From Oleiharenicola lentus (GTDB lineage: Bacteria > Verrucomicrobiota > Verrucomicrobiia > Opitutales > Opitutaceae), in assembly GCF_004118375.1 (NCBI RefSeq), contig NZ_SDHX01000002.1:485001-549000 (forward strand): a DNA stretch of 64,000 nucleotides, written 5' to 3'. The notes beneath the pieces were generated by a model. The model was not told the origin of the DNA and did not search any database. It saw only the letters and a program-made list of their open reading frames with translations. How positions within the stretch are numbered: the stretch's first letter is position 1; every line of letters begins with the position of its first letter. The position numbers and the translations under genes were made by a program. Shown here piece by piece: positions 40,956 to 60,800 of the stretch.

Positions 40956-40969
40956 ATGCCCTGATTGGC

Positions 40970-42571: not shown

Positions 42572-42580
42572 CCCCGCGCG

Positions 42581-45972: not shown

Positions 45973-46050
45973 GCGGCTGCGGACACCGGCCCGGCCGGGT
46001 TTGCGGTTGCTATGGCCCGCCATCTTACGTCTAGTCGGCCCGAAAATTCC

Positions 46051-47247
46051 ATGGCCCTGTCCCTGTTTTCCAAGACCAAGAAAGCCATCGTTGAGCGCGC
46101 GCAGGACGACTACGCGACCAAGATGCGGCTGAAATACAAGCCCTACTACCACGCCATGGAGTCGCAGTCGGGCACGCGCATCCGCCTGAACGGCCGCGAC
46201 ATGGTCATGCTTTCGAGCAACGATTATCTTGGTCTCTCCTTCCACCCCAAGGTGATCGAGGCCTGCAGCGGTGCCGCCCGGACCTGGGGCACCAGCACGA
46301 CCGGCGCCCGCATCTCCAACGGTTCGCGCGCCTATCATACTGCGCTGGAGGAGAAGATCGCCGCCTTCCTCGGCCGCGAGGCCTGCCATGTCAGCGTCGC
46401 GGGCTACATTTCCTGCTGCTCGGCCGTCGCCTCCTTCGCCCAAAAGGGCGATCTAATCCTCGCCGACAAGAACATCCACTCCTGTCTGGTGGACGCCACC
46501 CGCCTGTCCATGGCGACGGTCGAGCGTTTCAGCCACAACAACCCCGAGGACCTCCGCGCGATCCTCAAGGGCGTGCCGCACAACACCGCCAAGATGCTCG
46601 TCGTCGAGGGGGTGTATTCGATGGAGGGCCACATTTGCCGCCTGCCCGAGCTCGCCCAGATCGGCGAGGAGCACGGCTGCTTCACTGTGCTCGACGACGC
46701 CCACGGCTTCGGCGTTCTCGGCCGCCAGGGCCGCGGCACCGTGGACCACTTCAAGCTGAACGAGCAGGTGGACATCATCTGCGGCTCGCTCTCGAAATCT
46801 CTTGCCAGCACCGGCGGGTTCGTCGCCGGTTCCCGCGCGATGATCGAGTATCTGCGCACCAACTCCCGGCAGACGCTCTTCAGCGCGGCCATCAGCCCGG
46901 CCATGGCCGCCACGGCCTCGGCCTCGCTCGACATCATGCAGTCCGAGCCGCAGCACCTTGAGCGCCTCTGGAAAAACACCAAGCGCTACCGCGAAATGCT
47001 GAAAGGCCTCGGCCTTGATATCTGGGGCAGCGAGACCCCCGCCGTACCGATCGTGCTCGGCTCGAAGGAGCTCGTTTACCGCTTCTGGAACGCCCTCCTT
47101 GACCAGGGCGTGTTCACCGTGATGTCCATCGCCCCCGCCGTGCCCCCGGGGAAGGACCTCATCCGCACCGCCGTCTCGGCCCTGCACAGCGACGAGGATC
47201 TGGAGAAGATCGCCGCCGCCATGTCCTACGCGGTGAAGCAAATGTGA
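46051..47247 (+). CDS. PLP-dependent alpha-oxoamine synthase (SPT/KBL/BioF family)
   Basis: This 398-aa enzyme condenses an amino acid with an acyl thioester. It has MVMLSSNDYLGLSFHPKV near the start, the substrate loop GTSTTGARISNGSRAYH, the PLP-ring aspartate in VLDDAHGFGVLGRQGRG, and the Schiff-base lysine in GSLSKSLASTGGF (about 248). The family includes serine palmitoyltransferase, 2-amino-3-ketobutyrate ligase, AONS and CqsA. The setting between glycosyltransferases, not biotin or threonine genes, favours a lipid or signal product such as a sphingoid base, but this is inference. ATG 46051 is preferred over 46012. Confidence 0.82.
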   Translation: MALSLFSKTKKAIVERAQDDYATKMRLKYKPYYHAMESQSGTRIRLNGRDMVMLSSNDYLGLSFHPKVIEACSGAARTWGTSTTGARISNGSRAYHTALEEKIAAFLGREACHVSVAGYISCCSAVASFAQKGDLILADKNIHSCLVDATRLSMATVERFSHNNPEDLRAILKGVPHNTAKMLVVEGVYSMEGHICRLPELAQIGEEHGCFTVLDDAHGFGVLGRQGRGTVDHFKLNEQVDIICGSLSKSLASTGGFVAGSRAMIEYLRTNSRQTLFSAAISPAMAATASASLDIMQSEPQHLERLWKNTKRYREMLKGLGLDIWGSETPAVPIVLGSKELVYRFWNALLDQGVFTVMSIAPAVPPGKDLIRTAVSALHSDEDLEKIAAAMSYAVKQM

Positions 47248-47363: not shown

Positions 47364-48416
47364 CTATCGCAGTCCGTCCATCAGCGTCCGTGCCGTCTGG
47401 CTCCAGCGCGGCAGCGGTCGGCACATCGCCTCGCGCTGCAAACGCCGGCACTCCGCTTCGTCGGTCAGCACCGAGCGCAGCTTGGCTGACCAGTCGGCCA
47501 GGTCATTCACCCCGGTCATGAGGCAGCCGCCCGCATCCGCGTTCTCGTGCAGCACCGGCAGGTCGCTGCACACGCACGGCACGCCACGCCACAACGCCTC
47601 CAGAATCGGCAGGCCATTGCCCTCGGCGATCGTCGGGAACACCACCGCCCGCGCCGCCGCATAGAGCCGGGCCAGTCGCTGGTCGCCCGCGGCCGCAAGG
47701 AAATGAAAACGCGGCTCACGCTTTTGGAGTTTTTCCATGCGCACCTCGATCGGACGTCCGTGATGCGGATTCACGCGTCCGACGACATGCAGCTCGAAAT
47801 CCAATCCGTCGCGCCACAGCGCCCCGGCCACCTCCAGCAGGAAAGTCTGGTTCTTGCGCGGCTCCACGATGCCCACGCAAAGCAGCGCGGGCCGGCCGCG
47901 CGGGATAATCGGGTCGCGCACCACGCGGTTGCTCCCGTCGAAGTCCGCACCGAGCGTGATCACCTGAGGCTGTGACCTGGGCGTCACACCCTGCCAGCGC
48001 CAGAACTCCGTGAAGTCGCGCCGCGTGGCGTCGGAGATCGCCCAGGTCCGGTCGAAGGACGCCAGCAGCTTCATGTATTCGGGATGCCGCTGCACACTCT
48101 GCGGCCACGAGATGTGCGGCCAGCGCACCGGGATAGCATCGTGAAACATTGCCGCCAGCCGGCACGGCGGATTTGCCACGAAGGCGCGGAAGCCCGGCCG
48201 GTCCGCCTCACAGAACTGTTCCACGGTCAGCAGCCAGTCATCGGGCTTGGGCGTCACCGGCGCCGCCGGCTTGCCGCTGACAAAACCGCGCCGCCGTCCA
48301 TCCCAAGCCACCTCGGTCACAACGGAACCGAGTTCCTCGCGGATGCGCGAACTCAGCCGCATCAGGCCCGAGCGGTGCTTCGCCGTGCCCATCTTCGTCG
48401 TGTCGTAGTAGATCAT
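47364..48416 (-). CDS. Family 4 glycosyltransferase
   Basis: This 350-aa GT-B enzyme has IYYDTTKMGTAKHRSGLMRL at the N-terminus, AAMFHDAIPVRWPHISW, LLCVGIVEPRKNQTFLLEVA and ARLYAAARAVVFPTIAEGNG, with the donor element EGNGLPILEALWRG. The ATG overlaps the stop of the upstream GT4 gene (ATGA), which fixes the start; the frame stays open further upstream only by reading over that gene. It forms a two-gene minus-strand unit convergent with the oxoamine synthase gene. No clear terminator was seen in the 116-base gap. Confidence 0.87.
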   Translation of the reverse strand: MIYYDTTKMGTAKHRSGLMRLSSRIREELGSVVTEVAWDGRRRGFVSGKPAAPVTPKPDDWLLTVEQFCEADRPGFRAFVANPPCRLAAMFHDAIPVRWPHISWPQSVQRHPEYMKLLASFDRTWAISDATRRDFTEFWRWQGVTPRSQPQVITLGADFDGSNRVVRDPIIPRGRPALLCVGIVEPRKNQTFLLEVAGALWRDGLDFELHVVGRVNPHHGRPIEVRMEKLQKREPRFHFLAAAGDQRLARLYAAARAVVFPTIAEGNGLPILEALWRGVPCVCSDLPVLHENADAGGCLMTGVNDLADWSAKLRSVLTDEAECRRLQREAMCRPLPRWSQTARTLMDGLR

Positions 48417-49633
48417 GGCTTCATCGCCTCCTCGAAGCACGCGACCAGCCGGTCCGTGTTGCGGTGGGCGTCGTAGTTTTCCTCCACCCATCGGCGTGCC
48501 CCGGCCCGGAGGCGTTCGGCCAACAGGTCGTCGTCGCGGAACCGCTGCAACGCCACCTGCCACGCCAACGGCAGATCCACATCGCAAACCAAGCCGGTGC
48601 GCTCCTGCTGCACCGCTTCCGTCGTGGCCGAGACCGGGGAGGTCACGACCAGCACGCCAGCCGACATGGCCTCGGGAATCACGTTGGGCAAGCCGTCGCG
48701 ATCGCCACTGGGTGCAATGACCCCCGTATGCAGGAGCACGTCAGCCCAAGCGAGTTGTTCCCACACCTGCGGCTGTTCAAGCCGGCCGAGGAACTTCACC
48801 TGTTCGGCGACGCCCAGCTGCGCCGCCAGCGCAAGGAGCGAGTCTTGCAGGGGACCGTCGCCCACGATGCGGGCTTCGAAGGCAAAGCCCGCCTGCTTCA
48901 ATGCCGCGTAGATGCGAAGCTGATGATCGAGACCCTTCTTCGCCACCAGGCGCGCCACACAAACAAGCCGCAATGGCGAGCGCACCGGCCGCAACGGCTT
49001 GAGCGGAGGAAACGCCTCGAGCCCGCGCCGGATGACCTGAATCTTGGCCGCCGGCACGCCGCGCTCAACGAGCTCGCGTTTCGCCGCCTCGGTCGAGGCG
49101 TGGATGAAGCGGGCGTGCTGGAGTTTTTCCATCAGCCACCAGTCGCCGCCATGCTCATAGATGTCGTAGGCGTGCGCCCCGCTGCTGTAGCGCCAGCCAA
49201 ACATGCGCCACCACACCCAGCCCGCCGTGGCGGGTGCGCCGGCCCAGGCACCATGCACAAGCGCCGGCGGATCACGCTGTAGTTCCCGGTAGAAACACCC
49301 GGCGAAACCCGCCCCGAGCATGTTCTCCCAAAAATTCAGCCACGACGGCGCCGCGCGCGTGAACACACCTTCGAAGAGATCGCGGATCAGCCGCGGACGC
49401 CGGACGCATTGCCACGGGATCTCAAAGAGGAACAGCGGCAGAAGCCGCCACTTGTTGAAGCTACGCACCTGTAACCCGCGAAACTCGCCACCCCCGCCCC
49501 ACAGCGAATAGATGCGCAGATTTAGCCCCTTCGCCTGCAACGCCGCCACGTCGCGCTGGAGAAATGTCTCCGAGATTTTCGGAAACGTGGTGTAGAGGAG
49601 GACAATGGAGGGACCGGCTTTCAATCTGCTCAA
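48413..49633 (-). CDS. Family 4 glycosyltransferase, start beside a repeat
   Basis: This GT-B enzyme of about 406 aa has IVLLYTTFPKISETFLQRDV (the usual SETF N-terminal motif), LRLVCVARLVAKKGLDHQLR and ARIVGDGPLQDSLL. Donor-site DVLLHTGVIAPSGDRDGLPN precedes VIPEAMSAGVLVVTSPVSAT. No ATG exists near the start; TTG 49633 or 49624 must be used. The TTG at 49633 directly abuts a palindromic repeat (49634-49721), which supplies a GACAGG that could act as ribosome-binding site. The original start may have been replaced by the repeat. Confidence 0.85.
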   Translation of the reverse strand: MSRLKAGPSIVLLYTTFPKISETFLQRDVAALQAKGLNLRIYSLWGGGGEFRGLQVRSFNKWRLLPLFLFEIPWQCVRRPRLIRDLFEGVFTRAAPSWLNFWENMLGAGFAGCFYRELQRDPPALVHGAWAGAPATAGWVWWRMFGWRYSSGAHAYDIYEHGGDWWLMEKLQHARFIHASTEAAKRELVERGVPAAKIQVIRRGLEAFPPLKPLRPVRSPLRLVCVARLVAKKGLDHQLRIYAALKQAGFAFEARIVGDGPLQDSLLALAAQLGVAEQVKFLGRLEQPQVWEQLAWADVLLHTGVIAPSGDRDGLPNVIPEAMSAGVLVVTSPVSATTEAVQQERTGLVCDVDLPLAWQVALQRFRDDDLLAERLRAGARRWVEENYDAHRNTDRLVACFEEAMKP

Positions 49634-49772: not shown

Positions 49773-50684
49773 CTACGCGGTCGCCGCTCCGGCCACGACC
49801 AGAAACGCCCCGAGGGCCGGGTCGGCCGGGCCATCCTTGCGCCAACCGAGCACAAGCCGGCTCTCCGGCGCCGGACCCTCCAGCGGACGAAATGTCACCT
49901 CGTCCGGCAACTGCTTCGCCTCGGACGGCGCCATGAAAGTCGCGCCGAGTCCGGCGCGGACGAGCCCGATGGCGTTGGCCCTCGGCCACACTTCGTCGGC
50001 GATACGCGGGGTCACACCCGCCGCTTGAAAAGCCGCGAGCACGCGGTCGTAGAAACCGGGGTTGTGCGCCCGGGGGAACATCACGAACGCCGTGTCGGCG
50101 AGGTCCCGCAGCCGCAGCTTGGGCGCCATGGCGAGCTTGTGCTCGGCCGGCAGGAGCACGCCGTTTTTTTCCTGCAACAGAAGCTTGGTGCTGAAACCAG
50201 CCGGTGCCGTGATATCGGGGTGGAAGAATCCGCAGGCGATCTCGCCATTTTTGAGCGACTCCAGCTGGGCCGAGGTCGGCGATTCGTTCAGCTCCACCTT
50301 GATGCCCGGATAGCGACGGTTGAATTCGCGCAGAATGCCCGGCAGCACCGTCGCCATCGCCAGACCGGTGAACGCCACCCGCACATGCCCGGCCTGTCCG
50401 CCGGCCAACGCCTGGATGTCCCCGGGCACCGCCGCCAAGGCGCGGAGCAGCGGCTCGATCCGCTCCAGGAACGCTCGACCCGCTGCGGTCAGCTCCACGC
50501 GCCGCCGCGTGCGATTCAAAAGATCCACGCCCATCTCCTTCTCCAACTGCGCGATACTGCGGGAAAGTGCCGGTTGAGCCACCGCCAGTGACTCCGCCGC
50601 TTTCCGGAAGTGAAGCTGACGGGCCACCTCGCGGAAGTAAACGAGGTGGCGGAGTTCAAACGGAAATTGATACTCACGCGGCAT
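49773..50684 (-). CDS. LysR-family regulator divergent from leuC
   Basis: This 303-aa regulator has an N-terminal HTH ([39 protein letters not shown]). The substrate domain begins about residue 90 ([18 protein letters not shown]) and ends in an Ala-rich tail. It is separated from leuC by a 93-base divergent gap, the classic place for LysR control, so it may regulate leuCD in response to a leucine-pathway metabolite. ATG 50684 is preferred: the extra 12 residues of the upstream start lie in the likely promoter. The effector is not deducible. Confidence 0.88.
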
Positions 50685-50777
50685 CACAGGCCACGAAACA
50701 AGTATTTCTGGGTATGGCAAGTTTCTGGTAGTCTATCGCCTCTTCAGCACCAAGCTGACGACTCCCCTTTTCCCATC

Positions 50778-52196
50778 ATGTCCTCCCCCCAATCCCTCTT
50801 CCAGAAAGTCTGGGACGCCCACACGGTCCGCAAACTGGCCAACGGCCAGACCCAGCTGCTCATCGGCACGCACCTGATCCACGAGGTCACCTCGCCGCAG
50901 GCCTTCGGCATGCTGCGCGATCTCGGTCTCAAGGTCCTCATGCCTCACCGCACCTTCGCGACGGTTGACCACATCGTCCCGACCAACGAGCTGGTCGAGC
51001 CCTACAAGGACAACCTCGCCCAAGCCATGATGGACGAGCTCCGCAAGAACACGAAGGAGTTCGGCATCACCTTCTTTGACCGCGCCACCGGCAAGCAGGG
51101 CATCGTGCACATCGTCGGGCCCGAGCAGGGCATCACCCAGCCCGGCACCACCATCGCCTGCGGCGACTCGCACACCTCCACGCACGGCGCGTTCGGCGCC
51201 ATCGCGTTCGGCATCGGCACCAGCCAGGTGCGCGACGTGCTCGCCACGCAGACCATGGCCCTCGGCCAGCTGAAGGTCCGCCGCATCGAAGTGAACGGCA
51301 AGCTTCGCCCCGGCGTCTATGCCAAGGACGTCATCCTCCACATCATCCGCCTCCTCGGCGTGAACGGCGGCACGGGCTACGCCTACGAATACGCCGGCTC
51401 GACCTTCGAGGGCTTCACGATGGAAGAGCGCATGACCGTGTGCAACATGTCCATCGAGGGCGGCGCGCGCGTCGGCTACGTCAATCCCGACGAGACCACC
51501 TTCGCCTACCTCAAGGGCCGCCCCTACTCGCCGCAGGGTGCCGCGTGGGACAAGGCCGTCGCCAGCTGGAAGTCCTTCGCCTCGGATCCGGGCTGCCACT
51601 ACGACGACGTCGTCAAAATCGACGCCGCTTCGATTGCCCCGACCGTCACCTGGGGCATCAACCCCGGCCAGGGCATTTCCATCGTCGAAAACATCCCGAG
51701 CCCGGAGACCGCGACGTCCGACGACGACAAGGCCGGCATCATCGAGGCCCTCGCCTACATGAAGCTGCCCGCGGGCGCGCCCATCAAGGGCACGAAGATC
51801 GACGTCGCGTTCCTCGGCTCCTGCACCAACGGCCGTCTGTCCGACTTCCGCGAGGTCGCCAAATACATCAAGGGCCGCAAGGTCGCCGCCGGCGTTAAGG
51901 CCATCGCCGTCCCCGGCTCGCAGATCGTCGCGCTCCAGTGCGAGAAGGAAGGCATCGACAAGGTGCTTTCCGAGGCTGGCTTCGAATGGCGCGCCGCCGG
52001 CTGCTCCATGTGCCTCGCGATGAACCCCGACAAGCTCGTCGGCGACCAGCTCTGCGCCAGCTCCTCCAACCGCAATTTCAAGGGCCGCCAGGGCTCTCCC
52101 ACCGGCCGCACCGTGCTTATGAGCCCGGTCATGGTCGCCGCCGCCGCTGTCACCGGCACCGTCGCCGACGCCCGCGAAGTCTTCGCCGTCAACTGA
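50778..52196 (+). CDS. leuC: 3-isopropylmalate dehydratase large subunit
   Basis: This 472-aa Fe-S aconitase-family enzyme isomerises 2- to 3-isopropylmalate in leucine synthesis. The N-terminus [15 protein letters not shown] and the segment [20 protein letters not shown] are typical. The three cluster cysteines lie in [11 protein letters not shown] (about 349) and [13 protein letters not shown] (about 409 and 412). It is complete and of normal length. The leuD gene follows after a 108-base gap holding a large hairpin repeat. Confidence 0.97.
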
Positions 52197-52217
52197 TCTA
52201 CAATTCCCAAACCAATT

Positions 52218-52288
52218 GCCCACGGAACACACGGAATACACTGAACATTAGGCCGCTTCCTTCCGTGTATTCCGTGTGTTCCGTGGGC
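52218..52288. repeat. Long inverted repeat between leuC and leuD
   Basis: GCCCACGGAACACACGGAAT (arm 52218-52245) and its inverse (52261-52288) pair over 28 bases with one mismatch around a 15-base loop. The arm itself is made of CACGGAA/ACACGGAAT units. It has no T-run, so it is not a normal terminator. It would form a very stable RNA hairpin in the leuCD transcript. Confidence 0.9.
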
Positions 52289-52304
52289 CCAACTCCTCTT
52301 TCTC

Positions 52305-52913
52305 ATGGCCTTAGCTAAAATCACCTCCGTCACCGGCCGCGCCGTTCCCGTCGTCGGCAACGACATCGACACCGACCGCATCATCCCCGCGCGCTTCATG
52401 AAGTGCGTGACCTTCGATGGTCTCGGCGAATTCCTGTTCAACGACGTCCGCAAGGACCCGAAGACCGGCGCCACGACCGACCACCCGCTCAACCAGCCGC
52501 GCTATCAGGGCGCGACGATCCTGCTCTCCGGCGCGAACTTCGGCTGCGGTTCCTCCCGCGAACACGCCCCGCAGGCCATTCAGAAATACGGCTTCAAGGC
52601 CATCATCGCCGAGAGCTACGCCGAGATTTTCTTCGGCAACAGCACGACGCTCGGCATGCCCTGCGTCACCGCCGCCCGTGAGGATATCGCCAAGATCGCC
52701 GCCGCCGTGGACCAGAACCCACAGACCGAGGTCACCATTGATCTGGTGAAGCTCGAAGTCCGCTTCGCCGGCCAGACCGTGAAGATCACGCAGCGCGAGT
52801 CCGCCCGCGACGCCCTGATCAACGGCCGCTGGGACGCCATCGGCGAACTCCTCGACGGCGTCCCCGCCGTCAAGACCACCGCGGCCAAGCTGCCCTACCT
52901 GGCGACCGCCTGA
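52305..52913 (+). CDS. leuD: 3-isopropylmalate dehydratase small subunit
   Basis: This 202-aa protein is the swivel-domain partner of LeuC. It has VVGNDIDTDRIIPARFMK at residues 15-32, then ILLSGANFGCGSSREHAPQA (the substrate-binding loop, about 70-90) and IIAESYAEIFFGNS. It has the normal length for bacterial LeuD and starts with ATG. A strong terminator follows, ending the leuCD unit. Confidence 0.96.
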   Translation: MALAKITSVTGRAVPVVGNDIDTDRIIPARFMKCVTFDGLGEFLFNDVRKDPKTGATTDHPLNQPRYQGATILLSGANFGCGSSREHAPQAIQKYGFKAIIAESYAEIFFGNSTTLGMPCVTAAREDIAKIAAAVDQNPQTEVTIDLVKLEVRFAGQTVKITQRESARDALINGRWDAIGELLDGVPAVKTTAAKLPYLATA

Positions 52914-52937
52914 TCGCAGATTCATTGGCTCTCTCCC

Positions 52938-52966
52938 AGGGCGGGTCGGCCAGACCCGCCCTTTTG
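52938..52966 (+). terminator. Intrinsic terminator after leuD
   Basis: AGGGCGGGTC (52938-52947) pairs with GACCCGCCCT (52953-52962) as a perfect 10-bp stem with a 5-base loop, followed by TTTGC. Confidence 0.82.
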
Positions 52967-53038
52967 CTTGGCTGCGCTAAAGGTATAACGGCTTCAGCGC
53001 TTGCGACGACCTTAGAGTGAGCGAAGGTCTTGCTCACC

Positions 53039-54694
53039 GTGAGCGCCCCCACCCCGACGATCCGCAACCCGGTCCTGCCGGGCTTCAACCCCGACCCTTC
53101 CCTCCTCCGCGTCGGAGACGACTACTACATCGCGACGTCCACCTTCGAGTGGTTCCCCGGGGTGCAGATCCACCATTCGCGCGACCTCGTCAATTGGCGG
53201 CTGCTCTGCCGCCCGCTCAGCCGTCCAAGCCAGCTCAACATGCTCGGCGATCCCGACTCCTGCGGCATTTGGGCGCCGTGCCTCAGTCACGCCGACGGCA
53301 AATTCTGGCTGATCTACACGGACGTGAAGCGCTACGGCCGCACCTCGGTGGGCGGCGCCTCGGGGGCGTCGCTGCGCGATTTCCACAACTATCTCGTCAC
53401 CGCCGACCGCATCGATGGCGACTGGTCAGACCCGGTCTATATGAACAGCAGCGGCTTCGATCCCTCGCTCTTCCACGACGACGACGGCCGCAAATGGTTC
53501 GTCAACCAGCTCTGGGATCACCGCCCCGCCAGCAACCGCTTCGCCGGCATCGTGCTCCAGGAATACTCGGTGAAGGAACGCAAGCTGATCGGCACGCGCG
53601 TGAATATCTTTCCCGGCACGCCGCTTGGCCTCACCGAGGCGCCGCACCTCTACAAGCGCAATGGCTGGTATTACCTCATCACCGCCGAGGGCGGCACCGG
53701 CTGGGGTCACGCCGTCACGCTGTGCCGCTCGCGCACGCTGACCGGCCCCTACGAACTGCACCCGGAAAATCCGTTCCTCACCGCCCGTCACCGGCCCGAC
53801 GCCCCCCTTCAACGCGCGGGTCACGCCGACCTCGTCGAGACGCAGGACGGCCAGACTTGGATCGCCTACCTTTGCGGACGCCCTCTCAGGAACCGCGGCC
53901 GCTGCACGCTCGGCCGTGAGACGGCCATCCAGCCGCTGGTCTGGGGAGCGGACGGCTGGCCGCGCACCACCGACGGCCAGGGCATCCCTCAACTCAATCC
54001 GCCGGCCCCGGATCTGCCGTCGCACCCTTTCCCGCCCTCGCCGGCCCGCCGGGACTTTGATTCGACGTTACTGCCCGGCGAGTTCCAGTGGCTCCGCAGC
54101 CCATGGCCGGAAGAACTGTTCAGCCTCACCGCCCGGCCCGGCCACCTCCGGCTCTACGGACGCGAGACCATCGGCAGCCTTTTCAAACAGGCGCTCGTGG
54201 CCCGCCGCCAACAGGCCCACTGCTACAGCGCCGCGACGGTCATCGAATTCGAACCTGAACACTTCCAACAACTCGCCGGCCTCGTGTGCTACTACGGCGC
54301 GGCCAAGTTTCACTACCTCTACATCTCGCACGATGAAATTATCGGCAAACACCTGCGTGTGATGTCGGCCATCCCCGACGGCGTCGTGGGCGACTCCTTC
54401 ACCGCCCCGATCGCAATCCCGACCGGCCGGCGCATCGAGCTGCGCGTCGAAGTGGACGAAGAGCGCCTGCACTTCGGTTACCGTCTCGAGGGCGCCGGCG
54501 CGTGGTCATGGATTCCGCAGATCTTCGACGCCAGCATTCTCTCGGACGAGGCCACCATGCCCGGCTTGCCGAACTTCACCGGCGCGTTCGTGGGGATGGC
54601 CTGCCAGGACATGGCCGGCACGGCCCGGCCGGCCGACTTTGACTGGTTTGAATACCGCGAGCGCGCCTACGCGACCGATCCGACCACCCCCTGA
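53039..54694 (+). CDS. Glycoside hydrolase family 43 (beta-xylosidase/arabinosidase-like)
   Basis: This 551-aa enzyme has a five-bladed propeller (about 5-310) with all three catalytic acids: the general base in GFNPDPSLLRV, the pKa-modulating Asp in SSGFDPSLFHDDDG, and the general acid Glu in LTEAPHLYKRNGWYYL. Residues 335-545 form the C-terminal beta sandwich of XynB-type (GH43_11) enzymes. There is no signal peptide, so it likely cleaves xylo-oligosaccharides in the cytoplasm. It starts at GTG 53039 or TTG 53030; no ATG is available. It is convergent with the MGDG-synthase-like gene. Confidence 0.9.
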   Translation: MSAPTPTIRNPVLPGFNPDPSLLRVGDDYYIATSTFEWFPGVQIHHSRDLVNWRLLCRPLSRPSQLNMLGDPDSCGIWAPCLSHADGKFWLIYTDVKRYGRTSVGGASGASLRDFHNYLVTADRIDGDWSDPVYMNSSGFDPSLFHDDDGRKWFVNQLWDHRPASNRFAGIVLQEYSVKERKLIGTRVNIFPGTPLGLTEAPHLYKRNGWYYLITAEGGTGWGHAVTLCRSRTLTGPYELHPENPFLTARHRPDAPLQRAGHADLVETQDGQTWIAYLCGRPLRNRGRCTLGRETAIQPLVWGADGWPRTTDGQGIPQLNPPAPDLPSHPFPPSPARRDFDSTLLPGEFQWLRSPWPEELFSLTARPGHLRLYGRETIGSLFKQALVARRQQAHCYSAATVIEFEPEHFQQLAGLVCYYGAAKFHYLYISHDEIIGKHLRVMSAIPDGVVGDSFTAPIAIPTGRRIELRVEVDEERLHFGYRLEGAGAWSWIPQIFDASILSDEATMPGLPNFTGAFVGMACQDMAGTARPADFDWFEYRERAYATDPTTP

Positions 54695-54700
54695 CCGCAC

Positions 54701-55918
54701 TCAGGCGTTGCGCGCCTTGGCCGGAAACGGCCCCGGCCGGTAATCCGTGCGCGAAACCTCCTGGGCGAGGTTCACCAGCTCGGTGATGACCAGTGTCGGA
54801 TCCTCCTCGTAGCGAAGCCGGCGAAAATCGTCGCGGTATTTTTCGTAGCCGCGCGGATGCACGAGCCAGCTCTCGATCTGGCGGCCGAAATCGGCGGGTT
54901 GCTCCACCAGCTCGGCGCCGGCCCCGTTCCGGAAAAATTTAACGGTGAGCGACTCCTGCGGCATCACGCCGCCGAGCGCGTTGAACAGGATCGGACAACC
55001 GAAGTGGAGCGCCTTGGCACACGAGGTCGTGCCGCCGCGCGTGATGATCACGTCGCTGACCTGCATGAGCAGGTGCACTTCCTCGGAAAAACCGTCGAGG
55101 TAACAGTCCAGCTGGGGGTGCTCGGCGCGCCAGTGCAGCACCTTGTTGTAGGCCTCCCGGTTCCGGCCGCAGATGACCACGGCCTGCACGCGGCCGGCGA
55201 ACGGCAGCAGCTGCTCGAGGAAAGTCAGGTGGTTGTTGGCCCCGTTGCCGCCGGTCGCAAGGAACACCGTGAACAGGTCCGGCTGCAGTTCGAGCACGCG
55301 TTCGCGATAAGCGAGCCGCTCCGGCGGCAGCATGAAGGCGGTGTGCTGGCGGGGGCGCATGAGGTGCCCGCGCACGCGCGTGCGGGCGGGCGGCATGCCC
55401 AGCTTCACGGCGTAGTCGCGGGCAGTCGGGGTGCGCGAGATGTAGAGATCCGCGGTCGGCTCGACCCAGTTGATGCTGTAGCCAAAGCCGCCGGAAAATT
55501 CGCCGCAGTAGGTGGCACAGCGGACCTTGTCGCGCCCGAGGATGCGGCGGGCGGTCTGAAAATATCCGCGGTTGAGGCAGTCATGCACGCTGAACACGAG
55601 GTGCGGCTGGTATTCGCACAGGGTTTTCTCGTAGTAGCCCCGTCCGATCGCCACGGATCGCCGGTTGAGCAGGCTGAGCATCTCCACGAAGAGGAAGTAG
55701 GCCTTGTGCAGCCACGGTGACTTTTGCTGGATCCAGTTGTAGAAGCGCACCCCCGCGCTGAAGAGCCCCGACGACTTCTCCAGCATCTGCTCGATCCGCA
55801 CGTCCACGTTGTGACGGTAAAGCTCAAAGCACCACTCGGCAAAGGCCTGCGCCCGCGTGTCGTGGCCCGCGCCGGTGCTGGAGGTCAGGACAAGGATTCG
55901 GACACGCGGCTGATTCAT
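54701..55918 (-). CDS. MGDG-synthase/MurG-like glycosyltransferase
   Basis: This 405-aa GT-B (GT28-like) enzyme has the N-terminal MGDG_synth signature ILVLTSSTGAGHDTRAQAFA. It has HLVFSVHDCLNRGYFQTARR and the donor-side TVFLATGGNGANNHLTFLEQ, then VICGRNREAYNKVL and VIITRGGTTSCAKALHFGCP. Relatives add galactose or glucose to diacylglycerol (MgdA, UgtP) or GlcNAc to lipid I (MurG). The start overlaps the SDR stop (ATGA), making it the last gene of the ACP-DH / KS / SDR operon. A glycolipid role follows from that company but is inferred. Confidence 0.85.
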   Translation of the reverse strand: MNQPRVRILVLTSSTGAGHDTRAQAFAEWCFELYRHNVDVRIEQMLEKSSGLFSAGVRFYNWIQQKSPWLHKAYFLFVEMLSLLNRRSVAIGRGYYEKTLCEYQPHLVFSVHDCLNRGYFQTARRILGRDKVRCATYCGEFSGGFGYSINWVEPTADLYISRTPTARDYAVKLGMPPARTRVRGHLMRPRQHTAFMLPPERLAYRERVLELQPDLFTVFLATGGNGANNHLTFLEQLLPFAGRVQAVVICGRNREAYNKVLHWRAEHPQLDCYLDGFSEEVHLLMQVSDVIITRGGTTSCAKALHFGCPILFNALGGVMPQESLTVKFFRNGAGAELVEQPADFGRQIESWLVHPRGYEKYRDDFRRLRYEEDPTLVITELVNLAQEVSRTDYRPGPFPAKARNA

Positions 55919-56748
55919 AGGCCGAAGTAGCTCTCCTGAATCCGCCGCTTCAGCGCCAATGATCCGAAGCGCGCGAGCAAGGGCGCCACCACCGCCTGGA
56001 AGGGACGTCCCGTGCGCACCGTGCGGCTGCATCCGGCTCGCAGGGCGCGCTTGAGCGATTCCGCCGCATGCACCGGCGGCGGGCCGCTGCGCATCATCCG
56101 CTCGAAGGCGGTCCAAGCCCGGGCCATGCGACCGGCGTTGAGCGGATCGAGCCCCGGCTGGTCCGGGCGGCGCACAGAGCCCTCGAAATCGGTGCGGTAA
56201 TCCCCGGGCCGGAAATCAATCACGATCACACCGGTCCCCTTGACCTCATACATGAGGCTTTCACTGAGCGCGGACAGGCCCGCCTTCACCGCGTTATAGA
56301 CCGGCTGGTAGGGCAGGCTGAACTCACCGGCAAGGGAAGACACGTTGACGAGGGCCCCCCGCTGGCGGAGCAGCAGGCCGCGCAACCCGAGATGGGCGAG
56401 CCGCGCGGTATTCACCAGCATCACGCGAAACTGCTCCTCCCACGCGTCAAACTCCGTTGGCGCAAAGGCCCCGAAAACGCCAAAGCCGGCGTTGTTGATG
56501 ACCAGGTCAAATCCGCCCGCCGCCCGTTCCGCCTCACGAAAGGCCGCCTCGGCCCGTTCCCCGTCGGCCAGATCCAGCCGCACGGGATGAAACCCGACGC
56601 AGGCCGGCAACCGGCCGGGATCGCGCGCCGTGCCCCACACCTGGACGCCCTCCTGCAGCAGCATGTGGCTGAAAGCCAACCCCAGCCCGGTGCTGGCACC
56701 GGTGACAAAGGCGGTGCGGTAGCGGGAGGAAAGCGGACCGGCGCTCAT
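55915..56748 (-). CDS. Short-chain dehydrogenase/reductase
   Basis: This 277-aa SDR has the NAD(P)-binding TAFVTGASTGLGLAFSHMLL, the LVINNAGFGVFG motif, the catalytic Ser in ALVNVSSLAGEFSL, and the Tyr-x3-Lys YNAVKAGLSAL. The C-terminal 70 residues are basic and include KRRIQESYF. It is not a FabG by length and C-terminus, but ketoacyl reduction fits the operon. It starts 5 bases after the ketosynthase stop and overlaps the next gene by 4 bases. Confidence 0.87.
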   Translation of the reverse strand: MSAGPLSSRYRTAFVTGASTGLGLAFSHMLLQEGVQVWGTARDPGRLPACVGFHPVRLDLADGERAEAAFREAERAAGGFDLVINNAGFGVFGAFAPTEFDAWEEQFRVMLVNTARLAHLGLRGLLLRQRGALVNVSSLAGEFSLPYQPVYNAVKAGLSALSESLMYEVKGTGVIVIDFRPGDYRTDFEGSVRRPDQPGLDPLNAGRMARAWTAFERMMRSGPPPVHAAESLKRALRAGCSRTVRTGRPFQAVVAPLLARFGSLALKRRIQESYFGL

Positions 56749-56753
56749 GCGGA

Positions 56754-58013
56754 TCAACCGGCCTTGAACACGAGGCAGACGTTGGCACCGCCGAAGCCGC
56801 TGCTGTTGCTGATCACGACATTGGGACGTTGCGGCAGCGTGGCCCGGATGATGTTCAAGCCCGCGCAGGCGGGGTCGAGGTTGCTGATATGCGCGGAACC
56901 GGGGATGAACCCCTCCTTCATCGCGAGCGCGCAAAAACCAGCCTCCATCGCACCGGCCAGCGAGAGGCCGTGCCCGGTCAGGGCCTTGGTGCTGCTGATG
57001 GCCGGACGCGAGGGGTTGCCCTTGAAGATCGTGCGGAGGGCCTTGGCCTCGGAGATGTCGCCGATCGGGGTCGAGGTGGCGTGAGCGTTGACGTAGTCCA
57101 CCTCCTCGGGCGCAACCTCGGAAAGTCGCAGGGCGTTTTCGATCGCGGTGCGCAAACCGTCGCCGTCGGGATGGGAGATGGCCACATTGTATCCATCCGA
57201 GGCCTGGCCCCAGCCGGCCATCTCGCCATAGACCTTGGCGCCGCGGCGGGCGACCTCGTCTTCGCTTTCCATGACCAGCACCGTGGCTCCGCCGGTGCCA
57301 ACGAAACCGTCGCGCGCACTGTCGAAAGGGCGGGAGGCGATGGAGGGATCGTTTTGCAGCGACAGGGCGCGCATGCCGGCGAACGGCAGGATGCTCTCCA
57401 CATTGCCGTCCTCGGCCCCGATCACGAACATGCGTTTCTGCCGGCCCAGCGCGATCTCGTCATGGGCGAAGGCCAGGGCATGGGCCGAGGAAGCGCAGGC
57501 CGAGGAGAACCCCGTGGAGGCTCCGCGGATTTTGAAATGCGAAACCAGATTGAAGTTAACCGTGCCCGAAATCGAGGCGACGATCCCCAGCGGCGGACAG
57601 CGCATCACGCCCATCTTGCGCATGCGCTCGAGGTGATAGCCGAGCAGGAAGGGCGATCCGGCCGAGGCGGCGTAAAGCCCGGTGTCAGGGTTGGAAACCT
57701 CGGCCTCCGTGAGCTTCGCATCCTCAATCGCCTGCTGCATGGCGCAGTAGGCGTAAACCCCGTGCGGGGCCATGCCGCGGAGCAACTCGCGCTTGATGCG
57801 GTAGCGGGCGGGAAAGACCCAGTCCTCCTGGTCGATGGAGTCGGTCTGGAAATCCCGGATCGGGGCGGCAACCTTGACCGGCACCTCGGGCTTCTGGAAC
57901 GGCGGGTATAGCTCCATGCCATGGCGCAATTCGCGCAGGCTTTCCGACACCGAGGCGGCATCGTTGCCGATGCTCGTGATAAATCCCACTCCGGTGATAT
58001 AGACTTTCGGCAT
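56754..58013 (-). CDS. Beta-ketoacyl-ACP synthase (KAS II-like)
   Basis: This 419-aa condensing enzyme starts MPKVYITGVGFITSIGNDA. The catalytic triad is intact: the nucleophilic Cys in GFSSACASSAHAL (about 168), His in NAHATSTPIGDISEA (about 310) and His in STKALTGHGLSLAG (about 346). The C-terminal GFGGANVCLVFKAG is the usual end. Length suits FabF or aryl-polyene/polyketide-type KS enzymes. Because a housekeeping fabF would normally sit with fabD/fabG/acpP, this copy is probably specialised. ATG 58013 is preferred to TTG 58028. Confidence 0.9.
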   Translation of the reverse strand: MPKVYITGVGFITSIGNDAASVSESLRELRHGMELYPPFQKPEVPVKVAAPIRDFQTDSIDQEDWVFPARYRIKRELLRGMAPHGVYAYCAMQQAIEDAKLTEAEVSNPDTGLYAASAGSPFLLGYHLERMRKMGVMRCPPLGIVASISGTVNFNLVSHFKIRGASTGFSSACASSAHALAFAHDEIALGRQKRMFVIGAEDGNVESILPFAGMRALSLQNDPSIASRPFDSARDGFVGTGGATVLVMESEDEVARRGAKVYGEMAGWGQASDGYNVAISHPDGDGLRTAIENALRLSEVAPEEVDYVNAHATSTPIGDISEAKALRTIFKGNPSRPAISSTKALTGHGLSLAGAMEAGFCALAMKEGFIPGSAHISNLDPACAGLNIIRATLPQRPNVVISNSSGFGGANVCLVFKAG

Positions 58014-58112
58014 GAAGGAATCAGGCAAACGGGCAGGACTCGGGCCAGACCGCCAAATTTCGACGCATCAAAGTGCTTTTGCGCCGACGGTCAACCACCG
58101 CGGCAACGCCAC

Positions 58113-59057
58113 TCAGGCGTTGACCGCAGACTTGGCGGGATTGAGCGCCACCGCCTGCTCCGCCGGCGCAACCTGCGGCGTGGGCGGCTGGGCCACTTCC
58201 TCGACGTAGGCAAAGGTCAGCGTGATTTCCTCGGCGATGGCCGCCTTTTCCTGACCAACGCGGATCTGGCCCTCGAAGGTCGCCAGCGGCGACTTCAGCC
58301 GCTTGGGCTTGATCGACAGGCTGAGCACATCGCCCGGACGGCACACGCGGTGGCAACGGACACCTTCGCAGGAGGTGAAGAAAATGGTGCGGTGATCAAC
58401 CGTCTTGCCGGCCTCGCCGACCTGACCTTCGAGCAGGAAAAGGACCGCCAGCTGGCCCAAGGCCTCGAGCATGATGGAAGCCGGCAGCACGGGGTTGTCC
58501 TTGAAGTGTCCCTGCAGGAAAAACTCCTGGCCGCTGACCTTGTATTTGGCGTTGGCGCCATGGGCATTGACCGAAGCTTCGCCCAGGAAGAGGAAGGGCG
58601 GCTGGATCGGCATGATCGACACAATCTGCTCGATCGGAATGAACTTGGTGGGTTTCGGCAGGGGCAGACCGCGGACCTTGCTCTCGATGAAGGCCTTGAC
58701 GTTTCCCACGGTGCGCAAGTGGCGCAACTCCTCGTTGTTGATGGACATTTGGAGCACGTCCTCCACGAGGATAACGATTTCCATCATCGTGAGGGAGTCG
58801 ATGCCCAGATCCTCGATAATGCGGAGATCATCGTCGGCATCCTTCAGCTTCGCCCGCAGATCGGGCTCCACATAGCGCTCAATGATACCCAAGACGATGG
58901 CCGGAAGATGTTCCGTGTTGCCCGTTTTGCGAAACTGCGCCGCCGCCTCGTAAGTCGCTGCTGAGCAGCGCTTCAGAGCCTCTCTTAGGTTGGCATCATC
59001 CTCGGCGGTGAACGGCTTGAGAGTGACTCCGGACTGGGTGTTAACGGACTGTGCCAT
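58113..59057 (-). CDS. Acyl carrier protein fused to a FabA/FabZ-like dehydratase
   Basis: In this 314-aa two-domain protein, residues 50-135 are an acyl carrier domain with the phosphopantetheine serine in IIEDLGIDSLTMMEIVI. Residues 140-290 are a hotdog dehydratase with FLFLGEAS, the catalytic His in FFLQGHFKDNPVLPAS and the acid in IMLEALGQLAVL. Both sites look intact. The C-terminal 25 residues are Ala/Pro-rich. ATG 59057 is chosen. It is first in the operon, 99 bases before the KS gene, and divergent from the GT4 at 59231. Confidence 0.88.
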   Translation of the reverse strand: MAQSVNTQSGVTLKPFTAEDDANLREALKRCSAATYEAAAQFRKTGNTEHLPAIVLGIIERYVEPDLRAKLKDADDDLRIIEDLGIDSLTMMEIVILVEDVLQMSINNEELRHLRTVGNVKAFIESKVRGLPLPKPTKFIPIEQIVSIMPIQPPFLFLGEASVNAHGANAKYKVSGQEFFLQGHFKDNPVLPASIMLEALGQLAVLFLLEGQVGEAGKTVDHRTIFFTSCEGVRCHRVCRPGDVLSLSIKPKRLKSPLATFEGQIRVGQEKAAIAEEITLTFAYVEEVAQPPTPQVAPAEQAVALNPAKSAVNA

Positions 59058-59230
59058 TGGCTTCAGGTATGTTACATCCCAAAGACAAGTAAACCCCAAA
59101 AACCCTCCGCTGCCCTCGTAGAAATACGCAACGTGAGAGTAAAATTTTAGCTGATTGACTTGGACAAGGTTGCCTTGCGACATGCCGGACCCGACGGCCT
59201 CAGGCCCGAGTGCATATCCCATTGAACCCC

Positions 59231-60388
59231 ATGCCGCCCTCGGACTCTGCGCCCACACTGATTCTAGCCACTCACGAGTTCCAACCGCATCGCGGCGGAA
59301 TCGCGGTTTACTGCGCGGAAATGGCGCGAGCCGCCCAAGAGCTGGGCTATCAGGTGGAAGTCTGGGCTCCCGCGCTGCCCCCGGGAACGGAGGAGCAAGC
59401 CTGGCCATTTCTGGTGCGCCGCCTGAACCTGGCCGGCAACCACGGCCTGCTCAGCCAATGGCGCATGGCGCGTGAGCTCTTACGTCAGGGCCAACGCCTG
59501 AACCAGGCGACTCTCTACATCCCGGAGCCCGGTCCGCTGCTGGCAATGCTGCTGCTGCAGTATTTCGACACGATCCGCCCTGCCCGGCTGATGCTCACCT
59601 TCCACGGTTCGGAAATCCAGCGCCTGGGCTCGCGCCGCCTGCTGCGGTGGAGCACCAACCACCTGCTTTTCCAGACCGACCGCATCAGCGTGGTCAGCGA
59701 TTACGCCCGCCAGCTGCTGGAACAACACTTCCCCTCCTCCGCCGCGAAGGTCGTCGTCACTCCCGGTGCGTTGCGCCCCGATTTGCGGCTCAAGCAATCC
59801 GCCCCCTTGGCCGCCCCCGGGGCTAAAACCGTCATCCTGACCGTTGCCCGGCTCAATCCCCGCAAGGGCCAGCTGGAAGTCCTCCACGCTCTCAAGGCCC
59901 TGCCGCCCTCTGCCCGCGCCAACCTCGAATACCGGCTGGTCGGCGCCCACGGTAAGGAGAACTACGACCGCGCGCTCGCGGAGGCCGCCGCCAGTGCCGA
60001 TTTCCCCGTGAAATTCCTCGGCGACATCCCCGATGAAAAACTGGGCGAGGTCTACGCCCAGGCGGACATCTTTGCCATGACCAGCATGCCCCACCGCCAC
60101 AGCGTGGAGGGCTTCGGTCTCGTTTATCTGGAAGCCGGGGCCCACGGTCTGCCGATTGTGGCCCATGCCATCGGCGGTGTGCCCGAGGCCGTGGTGCATG
60201 AAGAAACCGGCCTGCTTGTGCAACCGGGTGACCGGTCCGCCCTGACTCAGGCCTTCGCCCGCCTGCTCGCCGACCCGGCCCTGCGCCGGAAACTGGGCGA
60301 AGCCGGCCGCGCCCGCGCCCTGGCCCGGACCTGGCAGGACTCGGCCGTCGCCTTGTTTGGACAACCGTCGCCCCCGCCTGCAACCTGA
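59231..60388 (+). CDS. Family 4 glycosyltransferase
   Basis: This 385-aa GT-B enzyme has ILATHEFQPHRGGIAVYCAE (the Gly-rich acceptor-domain start), LMLTFHGSEIQRLGSRRLLR and VILTVARLNPRKGQLEVLHA. Donor-site DIFAMTSMPHRHSVEGFGLV precedes YLEAGAHGLPIVAHAIGGVP, with the E-x7-E pair in EGFGLVYLE. It is divergent from the ACP-dehydratase gene across 173 bases, with the thioesterase gene next (4 bases later), so it may belong to the same lipid-sugar system. GTG 59210 is an alternative start. Confidence 0.88.
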   Translation: MPPSDSAPTLILATHEFQPHRGGIAVYCAEMARAAQELGYQVEVWAPALPPGTEEQAWPFLVRRLNLAGNHGLLSQWRMARELLRQGQRLNQATLYIPEPGPLLAMLLLQYFDTIRPARLMLTFHGSEIQRLGSRRLLRWSTNHLLFQTDRISVVSDYARQLLEQHFPSSAAKVVVTPGALRPDLRLKQSAPLAAPGAKTVILTVARLNPRKGQLEVLHALKALPPSARANLEYRLVGAHGKENYDRALAEAAASADFPVKFLGDIPDEKLGEVYAQADIFAMTSMPHRHSVEGFGLVYLEAGAHGLPIVAHAIGGVPEAVVHEETGLLVQPGDRSALTQAFARLLADPALRRKLGEAGRARALARTWQDSAVALFGQPSPPPAT

Positions 60389-60392
60389 AGCC

Positions 60393-60800
60393 ATGATTGA
60401 ATCCCACACGCTGATCACCGTCCGCTACGCCGAGACCGACATGATGGGCATCGTCTACCACGGCAACTACCTCCCGTGGTTCGAGGTCGGCCGCACCACC
60501 CTGCTCAAGGAATGCGGCTTTCCCTACCGCGATCTCGAAGCGCAGGGTTACATGCTGCCGGTGATCGAGGTCGGCGTGAAATACCAGCGCCCCGCCCGCT
60601 ACGACGACGAACTGACGATCATCACCCGGCTCAAGGAACGCCCCGCTCTCCGGATCCACCTCGAATACGAGGTGCGCCGCGGCGAGGAGCTGCTGGTCAC
60701 CGGGTTTACCACCCACGCCTTCATCAACAAATCCGGCGAACCGGTCCGCCCGCCCGCAGCCCTCACGGCGCGAATGAAGGAACTCTTCGCGAAGACCTAG
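60393..60800 (+). CDS. YbgC/4HBT-type acyl-CoA thioesterase
   Basis: This 135-aa hotdog thioesterase has the family core VRYAETDMMGIVYHGNYLPW with the catalytic aspartate in ETDMMGIVYHGNY, then GYMLPVIEVGVKYQRPARY and TTHAFINKSGEPVRPP. YbgC-like enzymes hydrolyse acyl-CoA or acyl-ACP. The ATG lies 4 bases after the GT4 stop, so it is co-transcribed. Its place next to the KS/ACP-dehydratase operon suggests a chain-release role. Confidence 0.88.
   Translation: MIESHTLITVRYAETDMMGIVYHGNYLPWFEVGRTTLLKECGFPYRDLEAQGYMLPVIEVGVKYQRPARYDDELTIITRLKERPALRIHLEYEVRRGEELLVTGFTTHAFINKSGEPVRPPAALTARMKELFAKT

What the first reader, a model, noticed from the sequence alone, without database searches (positions are those of the whole stretch)
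54701..60800. Compact ACP-dehydratase / ketosynthase / SDR / MGDG-synthase-like operon with adjacent GT4 and thioesterase
Four minus-strand genes are tightly coupled (5-base gap, then a 4-base overlap) and encode an ACP domain, dehydratase, condensing enzyme, putative ketoreductase and a lipid-type GT-B enzyme. A divergent pair adds a GT4 and a hotdog thioesterase. Together they cover chain elongation, beta-carbon processing, release and glycosylation, but there is no malonyl transferase, enoyl reductase or acyltransferase. This suggests a dedicated unsaturated or hydroxylated acyl chain that is glycosylated, like a minimal relative of aryl-polyene or resorcinol-lipid loci but with a glycolipid-type transferase. 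Catalytic residues look intact in the KS, the SDR and both domains of the fusion.
Basis: partly seen in the sequence, partly recalled or inferred. Interest (0 to 1): 0.72.

Follow-up and report, generated by a model that had tools for sequence, protein, structure and literature searches.

The report
Sphingolipid locus with its own chain-builder

Summary
The genes are there as described: ACP-dehydratase fusion, FabB-like ketosynthase, SDR, MGDG/UgtP-type glycosyltransferase, and a divergent GT4 plus hotdog thioesterase. Only two of the three joints are tight; ACP-DH to KS has a 99-base gap. The interpretation changes once the neighbourhood is widened. In most family relatives the operon runs on into more glycosyltransferases and ends convergent to a serine palmitoyltransferase (SPT); in the window these lie at 46-49.6 kb, beyond LysR/leuCD/GH43 genes. 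In a tree the SPT groups with known SPTs, apart from BioF and KBL. Across 273 genomes of the order, SPT and ACP-DH co-occur in 103 (SPT alone 8, ACP-DH alone 33, neither 129). Four of the SPT-alone genomes carry ACP-KS-SDR-GT convergent to SPT, without the DH domain. Best reading: a glycosphingolipid-type locus in which a dedicated ACP/KS/SDR(/DH) module supplies the acyl chain to SPT. That pairing was not met in the paper searches made. Bolder and untested: the fused dehydratase hands SPT a trans-2-enoyl chain, giving a Delta4 (sphingosine-type) base without a desaturase. A ceramide synthase was not found, no lipid data exist here, and the module occurs without SPT in some genomes.

The parts
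58113..59057 (-). ACP-dehydratase fusion, 314 aa: conserved N-terminal region, ACP with DSL serine, FabZ-like hotdog dehydratase
   Evidence: Pfam PF00550 and PF07977; Ser88, His184, Glu198 invariant 36 of 36; co-occurs with SPT in 103 of 273 genomes
56754..58013 (-). FabB-like beta-ketoacyl-ACP synthase, Cys-His-His intact
   Evidence: Pfam; NCBIfam FabB best but far below cut-off, 328 of 630 bits; tree apart from own and E. coli FabF
55915..56748 (-). SDR reductase: beta-ketoacyl-ACP reductase or 3-ketosphinganine-type reductase
   Evidence: Pfam PF00106 best; many SDR models, all listed far below cut-off; E<=1e-30 relative in 12 of 22 SPT-positive and 2 of 14 SPT-negative test genomes
54701..55918 (-). 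GT-B glycosyltransferase of MGDG-synthase/UgtP type
   Evidence: PF04101; NCBIfam diglucosyl diacylglycerol synthase best, below cut-off, MurG weaker; solved structures UgtP 53 bits and MGD1 49.5 bits
48413..49633 (-). GT4-family glycosyltransferase 'GTb', the most widely kept transferase of the locus
   Evidence: PF00534; in the ACP-DH stretch of 14 of 17 family relatives and beside ACP-DH in other families
47364..48587 (-). GT4-family glycosyltransferase 'GTc'
   Evidence: PF00534; follows GTb in 12 of 17 family relatives
46051..47247 (+). serine palmitoyltransferase-type alpha-oxoamine synthase (ORF opens at 46012; ATG at 46051)
   Evidence: NCBIfam SPT best, 373 bits, below cut-off 640; Sphingobacterium multivorum SPT best solved structure; tree with known SPTs 99/98; five active-site residues in 25 of 25 clade members
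59210..60388 (+). GT4-family glycosyltransferase, divergent
   Evidence: Pfam; divergent in 16 of 17 family relatives; relative beside SPT in L093 and L096
60393..60800 (+). YbgC/FadM-type hotdog thioesterase, divergent
   Evidence: PF13279, TIGR00051; next to GT4 in 14 of 17 family relatives

Best explanation
The block is the acyl-chain and glycosylation part of a sphingolipid-type locus. Shown by sequence: a dedicated ACP (fused to a FabZ-like dehydratase with its catalytic pair), a FabB-like KS, an SDR, up to four glycosyltransferases and an SPT-type enzyme that travel together. Inferred: the KS elongates an acyl chain on the dedicated ACP, the SDR and/or housekeeping FabG reduces it, the fused dehydratase may dehydrate it, and SPT condenses the ACP-bound chain with serine (or a similar amino acid) to a 3-keto long-chain base. 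The ketone is then reduced (the operon SDR is one candidate), the base is probably N-acylated by an enzyme not found here, and the head group is glycosylated by the MGDG-type GT and the GT4 enzymes. The hotdog thioesterase would release or edit stalled acyl chains. Enzyme activities and the product are not shown.
For: SPT identity: SPT models and S. multivorum SPT score highest; the tree places it with S. multivorum and E. coli BL21 SPTs (99/98), apart from KBL and BioF; same-genus genome G075 has a KBL and a BioF-side enzyme besides; PLP Lys, two His, Asp and Arg conserved 25 of 25 (these are shared with BioF and KBL, so they show an intact, not a serine-specific, enzyme). Linkage: ACP-DH and SPT both present in 103 of 273 order genomes, SPT alone 8, ACP-DH alone 33, neither 129 (from 47 and 48); on one contig within 20 kb in 49 of the 103 (counted by hand from 47 and 48, tallied in 73). 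In the 35 listed genomes of the window's family the two sets are identical: 33 with both, 2 (G085, G380) with neither. SPT-only genomes G158, G235, G248 and G366 have bare ACP-KS-SDR-GTb convergent to SPT. In 11 genomes whose fetched ACP-DH stretch lacks KS, a KS of this kind (55-60% identical) lies elsewhere in 10. GT is lipid-glycosyltransferase-like. Precedents, read in passages: rhodobacterial SPTs need a dedicated ACP (PMC9386255); an SDR is a proven 3-ketosphinganine reductase in Bacteroides (PMC9278070).
Against: ACP-DH occurs without a detected SPT in 33 of 136 genomes, 18 of them in one family (f65); G119 (rated 100% complete) has ACPDH-KS-GT-GTb but its best match to the SPT is a KBL. 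So the module can have another role. The SPT scores below NCBIfam's SPT cut-offs. No ceramide synthase: E. coli YghO gave no match in the own genome, a search without positive control, nor in 67 fetched stretches, with its own locus as control; FemAB_like gave none in the own genome. CerR gave only weak matches in the own genome (best 29% identity) and one 27% match in the 67 stretches (L099). SDR has no match at 1e-20 in G075 (same genus) and G045, both SPT-positive. A KS found outside the locus could in part be that of an aryl-polyene-like cluster. Co-occurrence figures are not corrected for shared descent.
Confidence: 0.72

Rival explanations
1. The ACP-DH/KS/SDR module makes a special (unsaturated or 3-hydroxy) fatty acid for membrane glycerolipids or for the N-acyl chain, and meets the SPT only because both belong to one envelope programme; SPT uses ordinary acyl-CoA or acyl-ACP.
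For: KS is sister to E. coli FabB, which works with a dehydratase in unsaturated fatty acid synthesis (the FabA/FabB role is recalled); ACP-DH without SPT in 33 of 136 genomes; GT resembles glycerolipid glucosyltransferases.
Against: SPT is accompanied by ACP-DH in 103 of 111 genomes and four of the other eight have ACP-KS-SDR beside SPT; in 49 of 103 the two are within 20 kb; DH is FabZ-like rather than FabA-like.
Confidence: 0.2
2. A minimal aryl-polyene- or resorcinol-like pathway.
For: KSs of aryl-polyene-like clusters in the order (L060, L061, L064, L065) fall inside the same KS clade at 50-62% identity to the window KS.
Against: No second KS, MMPL exporter or AMP ligase among the window genes scanned around the locus (nine, four, GTb and GTc); glycosyltransferases and SPT instead. 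A LolA-like carrier or acyltransferase of that kind would not show in Pfam (no match for those of L060 either).
Confidence: 0.04
3. The SPT-like enzyme uses another amino acid (alanine, cysteate), so the product is a 1-deoxy- or sulfono-type lipid. This is a variant inside the best reading, so its odds overlap with that one.
For: The family includes such enzymes; Ding et al. describe alanine and propose further amino acids for Spt (PMC11334938, passages); cysteate acyltransferase 28eh also matches, 195.8 bits.
Against: Serine-type SPT scores higher (310 bits) than cysteate acyltransferase; GTs imply a hydroxyl head, which serine supplies (inference).
Confidence: 0.1

Closest known systems
Rhodobacterial ceramide genes (acpR-spt, aasR, epi/cerR, aca/bcerS; Caulobacter CC_1154 and CC_1162-1165, E. 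coli BL21 ECD_02850-02854)
   Same: SPT next to a dedicated ACP, a reductase nearby; Caulobacter also makes glycosylated sphingolipids with two glycosyl transferases (PMC11324152, passage)
   Different: There the ACP is loaded by an acyl-ACP synthetase (AasR); here KS and in most genomes a dehydratase fused to the ACP accompany SPT, and no AasR or bCerS relative was found in the window or 66 other stretches
Pseudomonas SgaAB polyketide-synthase sphinganine pathway (PMC12134224)
   Same: Chain-building enzyme paired with an alpha-oxoamine synthase to make sphingoid bases
   Different: SgaA is one iterative type I PKS; here the parts are separate FAS-II-like proteins, and the locus carries glycosyltransferases
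Aryl-polyene/flexirubin-type clusters
   Same: ACP-KS pair of the same KS clade
   Different: Those read here (L060 type) have a second KS, MMPL exporter and AMP ligase; this locus has SPT and GTs
UgtP / MGDG synthase
   Same: family match of the operon GT
   Different: 53 and 49.5 bits only; acceptor here inferred to be a sphingoid lipid

Membership tests
Bacterial sphingolipid (SPT) pathway | alpha-oxoamine synthase in the SPT clade with active-site residues | tested here: met
   (below NCBIfam cut-off)
Bacterial sphingolipid (SPT) pathway | ceramide synthase (bCerS) homologue | tested here: inconclusive
   No match to E. coli YghO in own genome, no positive control, nor in 67 stretches with control; FemAB_like 0 matches
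Bacterial sphingolipid (SPT) pathway | ceramide/ketosphinganine reductase | tested here: inconclusive
   Epimerase-type CerR: weak matches only, best 29% identity; operon SDR is a candidate, KDSR model 99 bits against cut-off 400
Rhodobacterial AcpR-dependent SPT system | dedicated ACP beside SPT | tested here: met
   bare ACP in G158, G235, G248, G366; ACP-DH in others; dependence of SPT on it not tested
Rhodobacterial AcpR-dependent SPT system | acyl-ACP synthetase AasR in the cluster | tested here: not met
   E. coli AasR probe found nothing in the window and 66 other stretches, own locus as control; whole genome not searched
SgaAB PKS sphinganine pathway | type I iterative PKS beside the alpha-oxoamine synthase | tested here: not met
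   KS is a discrete 419-aa protein
Aryl polyene cluster | second KS/CLF, MMPL, AMP ligase | tested here: not met
   none among the window genes scanned around the locus; present in L060 (AMP ligase read by eye)
Housekeeping FabF | KS branches with FabF | tested here: not met
   own FabF L080 groups with E. coli FabF, window KS with FabB side
MurG | GT closest to MurG | tested here: not met
   UgtP-type models and structures score higher

The most novel reading that the evidence does not exclude
The dehydratase fused to the dedicated ACP makes trans-2-enoyl-ACP, which escapes enoyl reduction and is taken directly by SPT, so that the long-chain base is born with the Delta4-trans double bond of sphingosine without a desaturase and without oxygen; lineages with the bare ACP (G158, G235, G248, G366) would make the saturated base.
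Probability: 0.2. Interest if true: 0.82.

Novelty: new variant of a known kind. Interest (0 to 1): 0.6.

Why it matters
Verrucomicrobiota have been listed as carriers of Spt-like genes (22 Black Sea genomes, PMC11334938, passage read), but what feeds those enzymes was not met in the papers searched. A locus that couples SPT to its own ketosynthase and ACP-dehydratase would be another way to supply SPT, beside acyl-CoA, AasR-loaded ACP and a type I PKS, and would give a ready test of whether bacteria can make unsaturated sphingoid bases without a desaturase. It also marks a large bacterial order as likely glycosphingolipid makers.

Tried and rejected
Housekeeping fatty-acid synthesis: rejected, separate FabF in the genome and KS on the FabB side. 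Wall synthesis (MurG): rejected. Defence system: no PADLOC match for the six genes. RNA elements: no Rfam match at gathering score in the window. Finding a ceramide synthase: YghO probe and FemAB_like gave nothing; YghO itself matches no Pfam or NCBIfam model at the limits used, so absence is not shown. Finding CerR: weak matches only. Looking for further genes kept beside unlinked SPTs: in nine such stretches no gene recurred in all; GTc-like genes do in L066, L067, L069 and L072, GTb in L069 and L074. A conserved divergent gene in several families turned out to be a tRNA synthetase of the Trp/Tyr kind. Literature (listings and abstract beginnings seen unless stated): searches gave no description of this arrangement; (SPT, ketoacyl, dehydratase, gene cluster, sphingolipid, bacteri) found no paper. 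Passages were read of PMC11334938, PMC9386255, PMC12134224, PMC11324152 and PMC9278070; of PMC11087976 the outline and abstract.
Full report
What is in the sequence. The window lies in one of two contigs of a 4.7 Mb genome. The gaps are 99 bases (ACP-DH to KS), 5 bases (KS to SDR) and a 4-base overlap (SDR to GT), so 'four tightly coupled genes' is slightly overstated. The DH domain is FabZ-like (NCBIfam FabZ 67.6 bits, FabA models 21-23 bits). In an alignment of 36 fusions the ACP serine and the DH His/Glu pair never vary. That the window's own family is Opitutaceae is my inference from these titles.

The locus is larger than the finding. Stretches around the ACP-DH gene of 17 relatives of the same family give the order: TE and GT4 divergent; ACPDH-KS-SDR-GT-GTb-GTc; then a convergent gene. 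Counts of 17: KS 17, SDR 15, GT 15, GT4 16, TE 14, GTb 14, GTc after GTb 12. SPT lies within about 12 kb of ACP-DH in 12 (11 seen in the fetched stretches, G122 by its coordinates); in the other five it is elsewhere in the genome. In the window the same genes lie at 48413-49633 (GTb), 47364-48587 (GTc) and 46051-47247 (the convergent gene). Between GT and GTb stand LysR and leuCD genes, seen there also in two same-genus loci (L032, L033; not in L031), and a GH43 gene without a relative in the loci compared.

The convergent gene is an SPT-type enzyme. It scores best with NCBIfam serine palmitoyltransferase (373 bits; cut-off 640, so below equivalog level; BioF 330 bits) and with the solved SPT of Sphingobacterium multivorum (310 bits; best enzyme of other name 243.7 bits). 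In a maximum-likelihood tree of 44 alpha-oxoamine synthases it sits with 24 orthologues (100/100) in a larger clade with S. multivorum SPT and E. coli BL21 SPT (99/98), apart from E. coli KBL and BioF and the KBL and BioF-side enzymes of relatives (the E. coli SPT and BioF branches are long). PLP lysine, the two histidines, aspartate and arginine are the same in 25 of 25 (the role of these residues is recalled, and BioF and KBL share them).

Co-occurrence. In a phylum sample of 194 genomes, close SPT orthologues (476 bits or more) occur in 23 and the ACP-DH fusion (200 bits or more) in 24, with 22 in common (read from the tables, thresholds set at the gap in scores). In an order sample of 273 genomes (limits 1e-30 and 1e-100), 103 have both, 33 ACP-DH only, 8 SPT only, 129 neither (Fisher p 2e-35, not corrected for shared descent). 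All 33 listed members of the window's family with one have the other, and the two listed members without one (G085, G380, same genus as G140 and G400, which have both) lack the other. In 49 of the 103 both genes are on one contig within 20 kb (hand count from 47 and 48, tally); in the other 54 they are farther apart or on different contigs. Of the 33 with ACP-DH alone, 18 belong to one family, f65, whose listed matches are to ACP and DH separately; others such as G119, G128, G163, G202 and G233 are rated 95-100% complete and speak against an exclusive link.

Core and variation. The locus varies in an informative way. In the ten stretches fetched from families f52, f53, f54 and f67, ACP-DH and GTb lie before the convergent SPT with at most one more glycosyltransferase-like gene between, and no KS. 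In these ten and G131 a KS of this kind (55-60% identical) is found elsewhere in 10 of 11, the miss being G291, 88% complete; over all 17 genomes of that search, which included SPT-only genomes, it is 15. Some of these could be KSs of other clusters. In G131 KS and SDR form a separate pair. In four SPT-only genomes (G158, G235, G248, G366) the order is bare ACP-KS-SDR-GTb convergent to SPT, with an MGDG-type GT nearby. So ACP, KS, GTb and SPT look like the widest core, SDR somewhat less (E<=1e-30 in 12 of 22 SPT-positive and 2 of 14 SPT-negative genomes, threshold set afterwards; no match at 1e-20 in SPT-positive G075 and G045), and the DH domain is present in most but not all lineages.

The KS. 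In a tree of 37 KSs the window KS falls in a clade of 32 that is sister to E. coli FabB; the genome's own FabF (L080) pairs with E. coli FabF. KSs of aryl-polyene-like clusters of the order (L060, L061, L064, L065) fall inside that clade, as does that of L063, in whose stretch the second KS and MMPL of L060 have no relative. L060 carries ACP-KS, a second ACP (by eye) and second KS, a GT2, an MMPL protein and a halogenase-like flavoprotein, and by eye an AMP ligase, a LolA-like and an acyltransferase-like protein (the last two without Pfam match).

Mechanism. Inferred: KS elongates on the dedicated ACP; SDR and/or FabG reduces; the fused DH can dehydrate; SPT condenses the ACP-bound chain with serine. 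A dedicated ACP for SPT has a proven precedent in Rhodobacteria, where an acyl-ACP synthetase loads it (PMC9386255, passages read; PMC11324152, passages); an SDR acts as 3-ketosphinganine reductase in Bacteroides (PMC9278070, passages); a type I PKS paired with an alpha-oxoamine synthase makes sphinganines in Pseudomonas (PMC12134224, passages). Here KS and ACP-DH may take the place of the synthetase, of which no relative was found in the window or 66 other stretches. Glycosylation by an UgtP/MGDG-type GT and GT4 enzymes is inferred from family. What N-acylates the base, if anything, is unknown. The bold extension is that SPT takes the trans-2-enoyl-ACP directly, giving a Delta4 base. The invariant DH residues allow it, and no gene of the locus scanned is a clear enoyl reductase; the SDR does match PF13561 (72.8 bits, a family named for enoyl reductases) but PF00106 better (112.5 bits), and its YxxxK spacing, read by eye, is that of classical ketoreductases (recalled). 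Nothing here shows the Delta4 step, and a housekeeping enoyl reductase could intervene.

Novelty. Spt-like genes in Verrucomicrobiota are in print (PMC11334938, passages). The coupling to a KS/ACP-DH module was not met in the searches, which cover open-licence papers only and of which I saw listings. I rate it a new variant of a known kind.

Noticed in passing
L060, L061, L064, L065: Aryl-polyene-like clusters (ACP-KS pair; second KS and MMPL relatives in L060, L061, L064 and L065; GT2, flavin halogenase-like and AMP-ligase-like genes read in L060) in relatives of the window genome; their KS lies in the same clade as the window KS.
   Followed up: partly
L203:431-2442, L205:3226-6232, L055:11351-12154: A class-III aminotransferase (L203, L205) and an unknown 265-268 aa protein without Pfam match in L203 and L205 (C-terminus looks SCP2-like by eye) sit beside the MGDG-type GT or SPT in genomes with the bare-ACP version of the locus.
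   Followed up: partly
L103 (G210), L105 (G233), L102 (G207): Separate ACP and DH genes with the same kind of KS (in L102 only DH and KS in the stretch) in genomes without an SPT orthologue: the module has an older or second role.
   Followed up: partly
L078 (own genome C2:618000-637900): A further ketosynthase-like protein in the own genome keeps the Cys but aligns W and T where the two catalytic His should be (long branch, alignment unsure).
   Followed up: no
window 38820-45972: Upstream of SPT: a run of plus-strand genes for large membrane-type proteins and glycosyltransferases that by eye looks like surface polysaccharide synthesis; the GT next to SPT (44368-45972) is about 33% identical to GTc, and GTc-like genes lie on that side of SPT in several relatives.
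   Followed up: no
window 49773-54694: LysR, leuCD and a GH43 gene stand between GT and GTb; LysR/leuCD are also there in same-genus loci L032 and L033, but not in the other family loci fetched.
   Followed up: partly
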